From contig NZ_MQWB01000001.1 of the NCBI RefSeq assembly GCF_002257665.1, forward strand, positions 1,551,870 to 1,615,869: DNA of 64,000 nucleotides. Reading direction: 5' to 3'. The stretch's first letter is position 1. The number at the start of each line of letters is the position of its first letter. The DNA comes from Rubricoccus marinus (GTDB lineage: Bacteria; Bacteroidota; Rhodothermia; Rhodothermales; Rubricoccaceae). The notes under the pieces were generated by a model that saw nothing but the letters and a program-made list of their open reading frames with translations, had not been told where the DNA came from and did no database searches. Positions 5,682 to 52,464 of this stretch are shown here, piece by piece. The position numbers and the translations under genes are program-made.

Positions 5682-6380
5682 CTACAGGCCTGTGCGGTTC
5701 TCCGCCTGCCACCGATGGGTCATCACACGCCCCCGGGCGTGTAGTGCCAGTGCGGCGACAACGCACGCCACAACGGCAGCCCACCACAGGACGTGTCGGT
5801 CCTGGGTAAACGTGAAGGACAACAGCGCGAGAAACCAGAGCACTCCGGCGCCGAGGTGCGTCAACAAAGCGTGGGCGCTTTCGGCTGGCGCAAGAGGCGG
5901 CGCCTCGTGGTCCTCGTCGAAGACTTCAAGCCCGTCGAGGTCCTCCAGAAGGTCCTCAGTTAGAGGGCGAAGCGGGAGGGCTTGCGCCATGCTCACCACG
6001 GCCTCTGGCGTGCGATCCCCATCGTCCCCTACAACGCCACCGATTCGGAAGGCCTCTGGCGCTCGCGCTTCCTCGACGAGAAAGGAGATCAGCCGCTCAG
6101 AGATCAGAACAGACTCTTTGCGCTCGAACGGAATCCCGGCCCTCTGAAGGCAGGCGGCCACGAACTGCGCGTGGGGCGGGTCGGTGGTTTCGAAGACCAT
6201 ACACATCTCTGCCTCTGGCGCCAGAGGCCCCGCGTCCGCGGCCGGGTCGAAAAGCGCGATGTGGCAGTCCGAGCACGTGTCGACGTGAGCGAGGTACTCG
6301 ACGCCGCATCGCGGGCAGAGGCGGACGGGCGTGAAGCGGTCGGCGCGGCGCCTCTCGCGACGGGAGTGCGTTTTCGCCAT
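5682..6380 (-). CDS. Zinc-ribbon, DUF2007-like membrane protein
   Basis: Hypothetical 232-aa protein. A treble-clef style zinc ribbon near the N-terminus has two CxxC pairs (CPRC and CSDC, residues about 19-35). Next comes a segment like the DUF2007 putative signalling domain (MVFETTDPPHAQFVAACLQRAG), then an acidic stretch. Two hydrophobic helices near the C-terminus (GVLWFLALLSF and VLWWAAVVACVVAALAL) suggest membrane anchoring with the ribbon in the cytoplasm. The ATG at 6380 is chosen because the ORF upstream of it overlaps the next gene and is out of character. Function unknown. Confidence 0.7.
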   Translation of the reverse strand: MAKTHSRRERRRADRFTPVRLCPRCGVEYLAHVDTCSDCHIALFDPAADAGPLAPEAEMCMVFETTDPPHAQFVAACLQRAGIPFERKESVLISERLISFLVEEARAPEAFRIGGVVGDDGDRTPEAVVSMAQALPLRPLTEDLLEDLDGLEVFDEDHEAPPLAPAESAHALLTHLGAGVLWFLALLSFTFTQDRHVLWWAAVVACVVAALALHARGRVMTHRWQAENRTGL

Positions 6381-45858: not shown

Positions 45859-45975
45859 GGGGCGCAATGAGAGAGGAAGGTGGTGTAGGACTCCGCGATT
45901 CCCGAAGTTCCGCGAACCCGACGGCCTGTGCGCCGTTGGTGTCCGTCCCCTCTCTGCACGCTCCCCTCACCGCTA

Positions 45976-46527
45976 ATGCCGACCGCTCCGCCTCGCGGCC
46001 GCAACCTCCCCGCCCGCCGCACGATTCCGCCCGTCCTGGATCCTGCGGCTACGCCCGTCCCGGAGTCGCACCAACTCGCACCGCACCAGACCAAGATTGA
46101 GCGCATCGGCGACCACGTTGCGGCGCTTTCGGCAGACCTGCGCGAGTACGTAGAGCTCCGGATCGCCCTCGTGCAGCGCAAGGTCGAAGGCGTGATCGGC
46201 ATCGTCGAGCGGCTTCAGCATTACGCCGACGCCGCGAAGTTCTTCGTGCCCGCGGTCGTGCTCGCGCTTGTCGGGGCTCTGTTCGTGCTCCTCACAATTG
46301 CGTTTGGAATCGGCGCCCTTCTCGACAGCGTTTGGCTCGGCTTCCTCATCACGACCCTTGTGCTCCTCGCGGTTGCGGGTGTACTGGCATGGATGGGAAT
46401 GCGGAAGGTGAAAGAGGCGCAGGCAAAGGTGGTTGAAGCCAAGCGCAAGCAGCAGGACGAGCGCAACATCACTCGCGAACAGGTACAGGACACCGAGCGC
46501 CTCAAGGCTCGTCAGTCCGTCGTCTAA
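45976..46527 (+). CDS. Phage holin-superfamily-like membrane protein
   Basis: A 183-aa protein with an amphipathic cytoplasmic helix (IERIGDHVAALSADLREYVELRIALVQRKVEGVIG), two adjacent transmembrane helices (FVPAVVLALVGALFVLLTIAFGIGALL and VWLGFLITTLVLLAVAGVLAWMGM), and a charged coiled-coil tail. This is the layout of the 'phage holin family/Holin-X' proteins, chromosomal membrane proteins of unknown role that are usually next to YqjD/DUF3618 genes, as here. Stop and next start overlap (TAATG). Confidence 0.8.
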   Translation: MPTAPPRGRNLPARRTIPPVLDPAATPVPESHQLAPHQTKIERIGDHVAALSADLREYVELRIALVQRKVEGVIGIVERLQHYADAAKFFVPAVVLALVGALFVLLTIAFGIGALLDSVWLGFLITTLVLLAVAGVLAWMGMRKVKEAQAKVVEAKRKQQDERNITREQVQDTERLKARQSVV

Positions 46528-47198
46528 TGGCAGATCTCCAGAACACGTCCGGTCCAAGCCCCGGACCCGCAATCCCCACCTCCGAAGAACTCCTGCCGCT
46601 GCCTTCGGCGCACGTCGAACTCGGCGACGGTGTGGACCTCTCCTCGCTCAGCGCCGAGGACATCCGAGCGCGGCTGAACGCCACGCAGCGGGACATGAAG
46701 TTCCGCATCCAGGCCATCAAACACGAGGTCGCCCACGTGGCGGACGACGTGAACATCGATGGGCGCCCGCTCAGCGACCGCTTCCGCGAGAGGCCCCTGG
46801 CGGCGCTCGCCCTCGCGATCGCCTCTGGCGCTACGTTGGGTCTCCTATGGGGGCTCCGCCGTCGCTCCAAACGCCTGCCGAGCCGCGACGAGCGCACGGA
46901 CGTGGTGCAGTATCACGTCGCGGCCCTGTTGGACGCGGCGGCGCTTCGCGTCGCCAGAGGCGCGAGCGCGGACGAGGCGCTCCAGGCCGAGGTCCGCAAG
47001 AGGCCCGTCGTGTTCGTCCCGCGCGAGGACGAGACCACGTTGGCCGGCCAGCCGGGCGCGAAAAAGCAAGCCTTCGACGTGGCGATGAAGACCGCCGTCG
47101 GCATCGGCGTCAAAACGGGCTTGGACCTTCTTACGAAGCGGTTTACGAACCACGAGGAGGTATTCGAAGCGCTCGCCGATGAGGCGTCCGACGGCTAG
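46527..47198 (+). CDS. DUF3618/YqjD-like membrane protein
   Basis: A 223-aa protein. The region SAEDIRARLNATQRDMKFRIQAIKHEVAHV (about 42-71) resembles DUF3618; a single hydrophobic helix PLAALALAIASGATLGLLWGLRRRSKR (about 90-115) is like the YqjD/ElaB C-terminal anchor, which binds ribosomes to the membrane in E. coli. The remaining C-terminal 100 residues are not recognised. It overlaps the holin-like gene (TAATG) and so is cotranscribed with it. The stop is immediately followed by a repeat copy (TAGCCTCTGGC). Confidence 0.72.
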   Translation: MADLQNTSGPSPGPAIPTSEELLPLPSAHVELGDGVDLSSLSAEDIRARLNATQRDMKFRIQAIKHEVAHVADDVNIDGRPLSDRFRERPLAALALAIASGATLGLLWGLRRRSKRLPSRDERTDVVQYHVAALLDAAALRVARGASADEALQAEVRKRPVVFVPREDETTLAGQPGAKKQAFDVAMKTAVGIGVKTGLDLLTKRFTNHEEVFEALADEASDG

Positions 47199-47238
47199 CC
47201 TCTGGCCCCGGGCTCTTCGCCAAAGGTACCAAACACAT

Positions 47239-47272
47239 CGCGCGGCCTGCCGGGAGTCCGACAGGCCGCGCG
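47239..47272 (-). terminator. GC-rich hairpin, possible terminator
   Basis: CGCGCGGCCTG and CAGGCCGCGCG form a perfect 11-bp stem with a 12-nt loop. On the minus strand it is followed by ATGTGTTTGG, a weakly T-rich tail, which fits the end of the tiny minus-strand transcript; it could also end the plus-strand DUF3618-like operon. Confidence 0.55.
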
Positions 47273-47309
47273 AAGCAAGCTTGAGAAGAGGGCAGGCCCT
47301 CACTCTGAC

Positions 47310-47387
47310 TTAGATCTGAAAGACTGCGAAAACGCCGAGGCCAACGAGGGCCGCAGCGGCCGCCATAACGGGAATGAGACGATGCAT
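47310..47387 (-). CDS. Possible 25-aa single-span membrane peptide
   Basis: An ORF of 25 codons, starting MHRLIPVM, continuing with Ala, Val, Leu and Gly, and ending FAVFQI. The composition is that of one membrane helix with a basic N-terminus. It lies about 60 nt downstream of a good Bacteroidota-type promoter on the minus strand and upstream of a hairpin, making a unit of roughly 200 nt. It may be a small membrane protein, or the unit may encode an sRNA and the ORF be accidental. Confidence 0.4.
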   Translation of the reverse strand: MHRLIPVMAAAAALVGLGVFAVFQI

Positions 47388-47450
47388 GATCTCGCGGGTG
47401 GTGGGCCCGAGGTCGAGTGTGAAAAATCCCTTGTGGTGGGAACCGTGCCC

Positions 47451-47481
47451 AGAAGGTACCTAAAGCGGTCTATAAGGGCAA
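47451..47481 (-). promoter_or_regulatory. Bacteroidota-type promoter in the 47.4 kb gap
   Basis: On the minus strand: TTG (47481-47479), 20 nt, TACCTTCT (47458-47451). Consensus is TTG-N(17-23)-TAnnTTTG. It points toward the 25-aa ORF, with a transcription start near 47445. Confidence 0.5.
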
Positions 47482-47763
47482 GACGGCATGCCCTGTGACA
47501 CGGATATTGTCAGTCTTCATCAAGTCGGGGCCTTTGCACTGGTGCCGCACCGGTTGGCTATGCCTCCCGTCTGGGTTTCTGCTAGACCGTGCGCCTCTGG
47601 CGCCACACGAGGACTCGACGCCAGAGGCACAGGCGATTGCTCGACACGCCTGCAGCTCGCGACTGGTGCGTTGAGGACCGTGTAAGAAGTCCTCCCACGT
47701 TGCCGCAACGACCTCGCCAGAGGCCTCTGGCGGTAGCCTAGCGGAAGGAGGAATCATCAGGAC

Positions 47764-47779
47764 CCTCTGGCGCCAGAGG
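47764..47779. repeat. Head-on repeat pair
   Basis: CCTCTGGCGCCAGAGG in the long intergenic region, 50 nt after a tail-to-tail pair (CGCCAGAGGCCTCTGGCG near 47714). Neither is next to a known gene end. Confidence 0.85.
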
Positions 47780-47844
47780 CTCGGCTGAACCGTCGTAGAT
47801 CGGCGCTAGATGCCGCCGTTTCCCATCGCGAGAGCGCGCCCGTA

Positions 47845-50931: not shown

Positions 50932-52464
50932 CTACCAATCGTTCTCTTCTTTGACAACGCCCGTTTCCACGGGGACGGGGTATTCGCCAGAGAAGCAGGC
51001 GTGGCAGTAGCGGTCTCGGCTCTCGTGCGCGGTTTCCACAGCATCCATCATGCCGTCCACGGTGAGGTAGCCCAGCGAATCCACGCCGAGCCACTCCGCG
51101 ATCTCCTCGACTGAGCCGTGCGCGTTGACAGCCAACTCCTCCCGGCTCGGGAAGTCCATCCCGTAAAAGCACGGGTTGGCGACCGGCGGGCTGGACACCC
51201 GAAAGTGGACCTCCTTCGCGCCCGCCTCCCGGACCATTTTGACGAGCTGCCGCGCCGTCGTCCCACGCACGACCGAATCGTCCACCATGACGACGATGCG
51301 GTCTTTCAGCACGCCGCGGACGGTGTTGAACTTGGTCCGGACCTTCTGCTCGCGGCTGCTCTGGCCCGGCGCGATAAAGGTGCGCCCGACGTAGTGATTG
51401 CGGATCAGGCCGATGTCCAGCTTGCACCGGCGTCCCATCTTGTTGGACTCCGAGACGTAGCCGATCGCCGCCGTGTTGGAGGAGTCCGGAACGGCCATCA
51501 CGAGAGGCCGCTTGCCCTCGCCTTTTTTGACGAGCGGGACCGGGGCGTCGTGCGCCAGCCGCTTGCCCAGCCGGCGCCTCACCTTGTCCACCATGGCGCC
51601 GAAAACGAGCGAGTCCGGACGCGAGAAGTACACGTACTCGAACACGCACTGGCTCACGCCGTGACGCCGCGGCATGCACACGCCGCCAAACCCCGCGACG
51701 GCCTCTGGCGTCTTGCCTTCGCCCACGCGCTCCACGCCCGGCCGATCGATGACGAGGATCTCGCCGGGCTCGATGTCCCGCACGTACTCCGCGCCGACGA
51801 TGTCGAACGCGCAGGTCTCGCTCGCCACGATCCAGCCCGGGTGCTCGCGGCCCGGTGCAGCCGGGAGCCGGCCAAGCGCCAGAGGCCGGAAGCCGTTGGG
51901 GTCGCGCACAGCGATCAGCGTCTCGTCGGTCAGGATGACGAGCGAGAAGGCGCCCTCGCACTGGTGCAGGGCGTCGATGATGCGTGGCACGACGCCGCTT
52001 TCCTCGCTCTGCGCCGCGAGGTGGAGGATCAACTCCGAGTCCGAGGACGAGGTGTAGAGCGTGCCTCTGGCGGTGAGCGCCTCGCGGAGCGCGCGGGCGT
52101 TGCTCAGGTTTCCGTTGTGCGCCAGCGCGAGGTGGCCCTCCTGAAAGTGCGTCACAAAGGGCTGCACGTTGGCAGGGTTCGTCGAACTCCCCGACGTGGA
52201 GTACCGCGTGTGCCCGATGGCGGAGTCGCCAACGAGCGTGTCCTCGAACAGGCTTTTGTCGTCGAACACGTCCAGGACGAGTCCGAAGTCCTTGTGCACC
52301 GGCATCACACGCCGGCGCTTGGCCTCGTCGTACACGCTTGTTACGATCCCCGCGGACTCCTGCCCACGGTGCTGCAACGCGTGCAGGGCGAAGTAGGAGA
52401 GCCGAGCGGCGTCCGGGTGGTTGAACACTCCGACGACTCCGCAATAGTCACGCGCCTTATCCAC
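50932..52464 (-). CDS. purF: Amidophosphoribosyltransferase
   Basis: A 510-aa enzyme for the first committed step of purine synthesis (PRPP plus glutamine to phosphoribosylamine). The N-terminal nucleophile is Cys8 after a short propeptide (MDKARDY), as in the Fe-S type of B. subtilis. Glutaminase residues are in RYSTSGSSTNPANVQPF and HNGNLSNA; the PRPP loop is VVMVDDSVVRGTTARQLVKM. Four cysteines suited to a [4Fe-4S] cluster appear in SQCVFEYVYF, NPCFYGMD and CHACFSGEYP. ATG 52464. A strong -7 box is 21 nt upstream. The last residues end in KEENDW, with a tail-to-tail repeat pair just after the stop. Confidence 0.97.
   Translation of the reverse strand: MDKARDYCGVVGVFNHPDAARLSYFALHALQHRGQESAGIVTSVYDEAKRRRVMPVHKDFGLVLDVFDDKSLFEDTLVGDSAIGHTRYSTSGSSTNPANVQPFVTHFQEGHLALAHNGNLSNARALREALTARGTLYTSSSDSELILHLAAQSEESGVVPRIIDALHQCEGAFSLVILTDETLIAVRDPNGFRPLALGRLPAAPGREHPGWIVASETCAFDIVGAEYVRDIEPGEILVIDRPGVERVGEGKTPEAVAGFGGVCMPRRHGVSQCVFEYVYFSRPDSLVFGAMVDKVRRRLGKRLAHDAPVPLVKKGEGKRPLVMAVPDSSNTAAIGYVSESNKMGRRCKLDIGLIRNHYVGRTFIAPGQSSREQKVRTKFNTVRGVLKDRIVVMVDDSVVRGTTARQLVKMVREAGAKEVHFRVSSPPVANPCFYGMDFPSREELAVNAHGSVEEIAEWLGVDSLGYLTVDGMMDAVETAHESRDRYCHACFSGEYPVPVETGVVKEENDW

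What the first reader, a model, noticed from the sequence alone, without database searches (positions are those of the whole stretch)
47231..47481. Compact minus-strand unit: promoter, 25-aa membrane peptide or sRNA, hairpin
Within a 675-nt gap lie a TTG-N20-TACCTTCT promoter, a 25-codon ORF with a single-helix composition, and an 11-bp hairpin, all in the right order. Such a unit is too short for standard gene calling. It could be a small membrane protein, a toxin of a type I system, or an sRNA.
Basis: partly seen in the sequence, partly recalled or inferred. Interest (0 to 1): 0.58.

Follow-up and report, generated by a model that had tools for sequence, protein, structure and literature searches.

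The report
Conserved 25-residue membrane microprotein in Rhodothermales
A gene of only 25 codons, far too small for normal gene finders, encodes a one-helix membrane protein that is conserved across most of a bacterial order; its partner is still unknown.

Summary
Window 47387..47310 (minus) encodes MHRLIPVMAAAAALVGLGVFAVFQI. A Bacteroidota-type promoter (TTG-N20-TACCTTCT) lies 63 nt upstream and a 16-bp terminator-like hairpin follows. The ORF belongs to a 25-30 aa single-helix family found in 78 of 114 genomes of its order, Rhodothermales (74 at E <= 3.1e-10), against 1 of 130 in the rest of the class. All 27 hits in 394 genomes of the phylum lie in this order. In the window's family (Rubricoccaceae) DNA conservation starts at the ATG; pN/pS is 0.13-0.41 within families. 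The locus is typically near purF and a GroES-like gene. No Pfam, NCBIfam, PDB, PHROG or PADLOC family matches convincingly. It is therefore not an sRNA, and probably not a type I toxin. Conservation follows one helical face (p = 0.005). The likeliest role is an accessory subunit or regulator docking onto a larger membrane protein. Four candidate partner families did not track it. Function is inferred, not shown.

The parts
47451..47481 (-). promoter-like element TTG-N20-TACCTTCT (Bacteroidota-type)
   Evidence: Read; a TTG-N20/21-TANNTT motif lies 63-88 nt upstream of the ATG in 7 of 7 Rubricoccaceae loci (pattern with spacers 18-22, 200 nt searched), against 1 of 1739 control 90-nt windows of the same loci with spacers 19-21.
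47388..47450 (-). 5' leader, about 60 nt, no Shine-Dalgarno-like sequence seen
   Evidence: not alignable between genera in the family.
47310..47387 (-). small gene: 25-codon ORF MHRLIPVMAAAAALVGLGVFAVFQI plus TAA
   Evidence: homologues in 78 of 114 order genomes; pN/pS pooled within Rubricoccaceae 0.26.
47238..47273 (-). intrinsic terminator-like hairpin, 16 pairs, loop 4
   Evidence: hairpins of score >= 25 lie within 130 nt after the stop at 23 of 40 loci against 6 of 400 control stretches; 6 of 7 in the family by the scores.

Best explanation
It is a self-standing gene, with its own promoter and terminator, for a 25-residue single-pass inner-membrane protein of a previously unnamed, order-restricted family (25-30 aa, consensus MRNPVDRAIRAMTxGAGVVGLIVxxVFQLL). 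The short N-terminal part carries the charge and should stay in the cytoplasm. The last ~18 residues form a transmembrane helix that ends at the C-terminus. Invariant and near-invariant residues (I9, M12, A16, V19, G20, V23, F27 in alignment columns) fall mainly on one side of the helix, with small residues A/G at 15-17 and 20. The protein most likely works by packing this face against a transmembrane helix of a larger, chromosomally unlinked membrane protein, as an accessory subunit or regulator. Shown here: coding conservation, distribution, locus, helix prediction. Inferred: transcription, translation, orientation, the partner and its function.
For: Homologues at E <= 0.01 in 78 of 114 Rhodothermales genomes, 74 of them at E <= 3.1e-10; 1 of 130 in the rest of the class, inside a 469-aa frame; 27 hits in the phylum sample, all in this order. 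pN/pS by family 0.26, 0.13, 0.18, 0.15, 0.19, 0.41. DNA conservation among Rubricoccaceae begins at the ATG. Of 40 loci, purF lies upstream on the same strand in 23 and the GroES-like gene downstream in 19. AlphaFold2 on a 30-aa relative: one helix, residues 4-29, mean pLDDT 94.4. Hydropathy max 18-mer mean 1.87-2.76 in 35 of 35 rows, no charge in the last 18 residues in 32 of 35. Conservation moment at 100 degrees per residue, p = 0.0047 by shuffling, highest of the 13 angles tried. Hairpin and promoter statistics.
Against: No transcript, peptide or phenotype data were available. The one-sided conservation could also reflect self-oligomerisation or other constraints. The N-terminal net charge is 0 in the Salinibacter-type rows, so orientation is unsure there. 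36 of 114 order genomes have no hit at E <= 0.01, including all genomes of families f14 and f15, so it is not universally needed. G026, 99% complete with purF and the GroES-like gene in place, lacks a hit between them. Four candidate partner families do not track it.
Confidence: 0.6

Rival explanations
1. Type I toxin or other membrane-depolarising peptide kept silent by an antisense RNA.
For: Size and single-helix composition resemble TisB/Hok-like toxins (recalled). Second copies exist in some genomes.
Against: Order-wide vertical-looking distribution at a conserved site, no phage or plasmid match, an antisense promoter-like motif at 1 of 40 loci, strong purifying selection on the residues, no PADLOC match.
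Confidence: 0.07
2. Self-assembling membrane peptide (homo-oligomer) that senses or alters the membrane itself, without a protein partner.
For: Small residues A/G at columns 15, 16, 17 and 20 could give helix-helix packing; one conserved face.
Against: Invariant bulky I9, V19 and F27 along the same side suggest a specific surface, but that does not exclude a homo-oligomer.
Confidence: 0.2
3. Subunit of a respiratory oxidase, in the manner of CydX, CcoM or subunit IIa of ba3 oxidases.
For: Many known bacterial proteins of this size are oxidase subunits (recalled; subunit IIa passages read in PMC3128077). COX4_pro, a subunit IV of oxidases, is in 55 of 55 genomes tested, so an oxidase is always there.
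Against: FixO (cbb3) is missing in 13 of 39 peptide-bearing genomes; CydA is present in only 7 of 39; COX4_pro is universal and so does not explain the losses. I recognised no oxidase gene among the conserved neighbours. The subunit IIa hallmarks (Trp, PX1-3GT/A) are absent from the alignment.
Confidence: 0.13
4. Non-coding sRNA or leader RNA, with the ORF incidental.
For: Self-contained promoter and terminator.
Against: Amino acids are conserved while synonymous sites and the leader diverge; no Rfam match at this place.
Confidence: 0.02

Closest known systems
Small single-helix subunits and regulators of bacterial membrane complexes (CydX, CcoM, KdpF, AcrZ, MgtS; recalled as a class)
   Same: 25-50 aa, one transmembrane helix, missed by gene callers, conserved within a lineage, conserved residues on the helix
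   Different: No sequence match in Pfam or NCBIfam above a cut-off; not next to a recognisable partner; order-restricted
Subunit IIa (CoxIIa/CbaD) of B-type ba3 oxidases (PMC3128077, passages read)
   Same: Tiny single-helix protein, unannotated in Salinibacter ruber according to that paper's Table 1
   Different: That subunit is encoded directly upstream of subunit II, has conserved Gly and Trp (Tyr in Salinibacter) and a PX1-3GT/A motif, and in Salinibacter has 7196 Da; the present family has no such motif and another locus
Type I toxins such as Hok, TisB, Ldr (recalled)
   Same: Short hydrophobic single-helix peptide with own transcription unit
   Different: No antisense partner seen, not mobile, mostly single-copy, under purifying selection order-wide

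Membership tests
Small single-pass membrane proteins (general kind) | ORF under 50 codons with protein-level conservation | tested here: met
   78 of 114 order genomes; pN/pS 0.13-0.41; translation itself not testable here
Small single-pass membrane proteins (general kind) | One transmembrane helix | tested here: met
   Hydropathy, 35 of 35 rows with max 18-mer mean 1.87 or more; AlphaFold2 single helix 4-29, pLDDT 94.4, on a 30-aa relative
Type I toxin | Overlapping or nearby antisense RNA antitoxin | tested here: inconclusive
   Promoter-like motif on the antisense strand at 1 of 40 loci; no RNA data
Type I toxin | Toxic on overexpression | not testable with these tools
   needs an expression assay
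Type I toxin | Carried by mobile elements or as many scattered copies | tested here: not met
   No match in 72,556 plasmid and 50,697 phage records (one 30-aa relative each); mostly one copy per genome
ba3 oxidase subunit IIa | Gene directly upstream of subunit II, conserved Trp and PX1-3GT/A motif | tested here: not met
   Motif absent from the 35-row alignment; no oxidase gene recognised among the conserved neighbours; features from PMC3128077
CydX (cytochrome bd subunit) | Occurs with cydAB | tested here: not met
   CydA family in only 7 of 39 peptide-bearing genomes
cbb3 oxidase small subunit (CcoM/CcoS-like) | Occurs with ccoNO | tested here: not met
   FixO missing in 13 of 39 peptide-bearing genomes
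Non-coding sRNA | RNA-level rather than codon-level conservation | tested here: not met
   no Rfam match except one tRNA in the window

The most novel reading that the evidence does not exclude
The peptide is an ancestral component of Rhodothermales: an unrecognised subunit or regulator of a core membrane complex (respiratory, secretory or transport). It was gained at the base of the order, kept near purF and the GroES-like gene, and lost or replaced in two families (f14, f15) whose complex has changed. Its conserved helix face marks the docking site, and the losses give a natural experiment for finding the partner.
Probability: 0.4. Interest if true: 0.72.

Novelty: new member of a known kind. 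Interest (0 to 1): 0.55.

Why it matters
It turns one tool-less guess into a defined gene family across an order that includes Salinibacter-like genomes, Roseithermus and Rubricoccaceae, including cultured organisms where it can be deleted or tagged. A 25-codon gene with its own promoter and terminator, kept over such distances and absent from the annotation libraries searched, shows what gene callers miss. The pattern of presence and loss and the one-sided conservation make the partner directly searchable.

Tried and rejected
sRNA and type I toxin: rejected or downgraded as above. Unassigned transmembrane helix in the Rhodothermus marinus alternative complex III structure: the passages read in PMC5928083 report two additional densities, one assigned to ActH and one unidentified in the periplasm, and no density for ActG, so no orphan membrane helix is offered there. 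PMC8552683 passages added nothing. Partner by phylogenetic profile, 55 genomes each (39 with the peptide or a divergent form, 16 without): FixO 26 of 39 against 2 of 16; CydA 7 of 39 against 13 of 16, an inverse trend that may only reflect lineage; COX4_pro 55 of 55; NQR2/RnfD 9 of 39 against 1 of 16. None tracks the peptide. The 16 without belong to few lineages and are not 16 independent losses.

Divergent forms: f10 (G017, G029, G039) is accepted because the divergent ggt upstream and, in G017 and G039, a symporter downstream match the other loci. f4 (G011, G025, G036: MLQYARSIKLMLVCTAIVSLLVLLVYNFAL) has weak scores and other neighbours and is left open. Weak hits (L018, L020, L021, L023, L028) lie in other frames or long ORFs and were dropped by eye; L019 was not followed up, and L027 was read from the wrong start (its genome G087 has a true copy). 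Of the five genomes, the G023 match lay inside another gene; that genome has its own copy elsewhere. Syntenic places in f14, f15 and G026 were searched with the profile (15 stretches of 9 genomes) and gave no hit with E below 1. PurF tree: the row G039 was in a wrong reading frame and must be ignored; the placing of the outgroups, from one gene, suggests presence at the base of the order.

Literature: searches (listings only, apart from passages of the three papers named) showed no paper on this family. This covers only the open PMC library. Mass catalogues of small ORFs (for example PMC11364881, listing and abstract start only) may already hold members without a name.

Full report
The observation. 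On the minus strand of a 675-nt gap lie, in order, TTG (47481-47479), a 20-nt spacer, TACCTTCT (47458-47451), an ORF of 25 codons (47387-47310) and a hairpin (47273-47238). The ORF reads MHRLIPVMAAAAALVGLGVFAVFQI. The hairpin has 16 pairs and folds at -38.2 kcal/mol, z = -6.75. In 2000 first-order Markov resamplings of the gap, 0.2% had a 20-40 aa ATG ORF with a hydropathy peak of 2.0 or more.

The test that decides. A DNA search in 60 relatives with the 301-nt region gave 5 genomes (own included), and in G007, another genus of the same family, the match was just the ORF; one of the five, G023, matched inside another gene. A tblastn search of the 114 genomes of the order and the translations showed short ORFs with one common pattern. 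A 14-row profile, then a 35-row profile, found homologues in 78 of 114 order genomes at E <= 0.01, 74 of them at E <= 3.1e-10, against 1 of 130 genomes in the rest of the class. In a sample of 394 genomes of the phylum, 27 matched at E <= 0.001, all in this order. Seven of 9 genomes of the window's own family have it; the two without (G003, G008) are fragmented drafts of 88% and 81% completeness.

What is conserved. Of the 40 fetched loci, all but one (G018) have an ATG at or near the start of the profile match. In the alignment of seven Rubricoccaceae loci the ATG is invariant and the leader before it is poorly alignable. The substitution pattern is that of a protein: pN/pS pooled within families is 0.26 (Rubricoccaceae), 0.13, 0.18, 0.15, 0.19 and 0.41 (uncorrected proportions). 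In the window's family the first four residues seen elsewhere are missing and the protein starts at alignment column 5. The names come from records: Rubricoccaceae and Rubrivirga relatives, Roseithermus sacchariphilus, Salinibacter and Salinivenus. A PurF-guided set of 80 public contigs had the peptide in 20, on the strand of purF in all 20. Many of the other contigs are Chlorobi or end before the place, so this is no rate. In Salinibacter-like genomes (f13) the gene stands before the GroES-like gene, away from purF.

The unit. A TTG-N20/21-TANNTT motif lies 63-88 nt upstream in 7 of 7 Rubricoccaceae loci, against 1 of 1739 control 90-nt windows with slightly narrower spacing. Over all 40 loci the stretch -110 to -20 holds it in 15, against 46 of 9643 control windows. 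Outside the window's family many loci lack this exact consensus. Hairpins scoring 25 or more follow the stop within 130 nt in 23 of 40 loci against 6 of 400 control stretches. Neighbours vary, while the gene mostly keeps its own hairpin: of 40 loci, purF is upstream on the same strand in 23 and the GroES-like gene downstream in 19. Elsewhere a divergent gamma-glutamyltranspeptidase gene, a symporter or a glycosyltransferase is next to it. PurF-type, Cpn10, HolB-type and GGT domains are confirmed by Pfam; the other neighbour names are my reading of the sequence. In the window the old neighbourhood is rearranged: purF lies at 50932-52464, minus strand, 3.5 kb upstream, with a HAD-family gene and OmpA/DUF4398 genes of the other strand in between.

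Ancestry. A PurF tree of 44 rows puts the outgroups between Rubricoccaceae plus f10 and the rest. Both sides carry the peptide, so it was probably present at the base of the order. The families without it (f14, f15) sit among peptide-bearing ones. One row (G039) was wrong and the tree is of one gene. f10 has a divergent copy at the matching place. The forms in f4 are uncertain. G026 has purF and the GroES-like gene together and no peptide between, which looks like a real loss.

How it may work. The peptide is predicted as one helix (calculated on a 30-aa relative because 25 residues are too few for the tool). The last 18 residues have no charge in 32 of 35 rows, and the first 12 have net charge 0 to +2. 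The conservation along the helix peaks at 100 degrees per residue, p = 0.0047 by shuffling of columns. I9, M12, A16, V19, G20, V23 and F27 lie within 60 degrees of the conserved side; L21 and V26, also well conserved, do not. A helix with one conserved face, no soluble domain and strong purifying selection most plausibly docks onto another membrane helix. The partner is unknown. cbb3 oxidase, cytochrome bd, oxidase subunit IV and NQR/Rnf families do not track presence and absence, and the R. marinus alternative complex III structure paper reports no orphan membrane helix in the passages read.

Comparison with the known. No Pfam or NCBIfam family reached its curated cut-off where one was shown, and the best E-values were 0.017 and 0.011 (14 members each). 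The only PDB match had E = 8. PHROGs gave only weak matches (best E 0.018) and PADLOC none (35 members each). Plasmid and phage records gave no match. Of the type I toxin features, mobility was tested and not met, the antisense partner was inconclusive, and toxicity could not be tested. The literature searches showed nothing on this family in the open library.

Verdict. Real, conserved as a protein, and apparently unnamed: a new family of a known kind (small single-helix membrane proteins). The coding claim is near certain; the docking model is the best inference and remains to be tested.

Noticed in passing
whole window, e.g. 47593-47628, 47715-47732, 47771-47780; G000 genome-wide: The 10-mer GCCTCTGGCG occurs 211 times in 64 kb (expected 0.56 by shuffles), in genes and gaps alike (read in frame as ARGLWR and similar). 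Its 16-mer palindrome GCCAGAGGCCTCTGGC occurs 529 times in this genome but 3 or fewer times in each of 11 relatives searched, congener included. This looks like a HIP1-like (recalled) dispersed palindrome that has expanded in this one species.
   Followed up: partly
L092 (G020, f13) near base 5980; also G031:C1:5661 and G082:C3:5451: A second, more divergent copy of the peptide (MENSVDTAIRFLTVAAGGVGFLVLLLIQLL in G020) lies in another locus, between genes that read like hisF and metG (my reading).
   Followed up: partly
L076 (G019) and L078 (G030): Family f12 has a paralogue (MRNPVERAIRTMTVGAGIVSMIVFTVFTLL and a relative) near a divergent gene reading like 6-phosphofructokinase (my reading).
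   Followed up: partly
G094:C91 99734 and 133748: Two peptide copies with equal scores in opposite orientation 34 kb apart in one contig; a matching public contig shows two purF copies with the same peptide (L154, L155). A duplicated segment or an assembly artefact.
   Followed up: no
window 45928-47198, + strand: A Holin-X (Phage_holin_3_6) membrane protein and a 223-aa protein without Pfam match converge on the small gene; a similar arrangement is kept in the congener G001.
   Followed up: no
G034, G009, G015, G019, G026, f14 and f15 genomes: CydA-family matches are of two kinds: full-length (E about 1e-140 to 1e-161) and half-length matches inside frames of about 600-690 aa (E about 1e-25), the latter in f14, f15 and a few others.
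   Followed up: no
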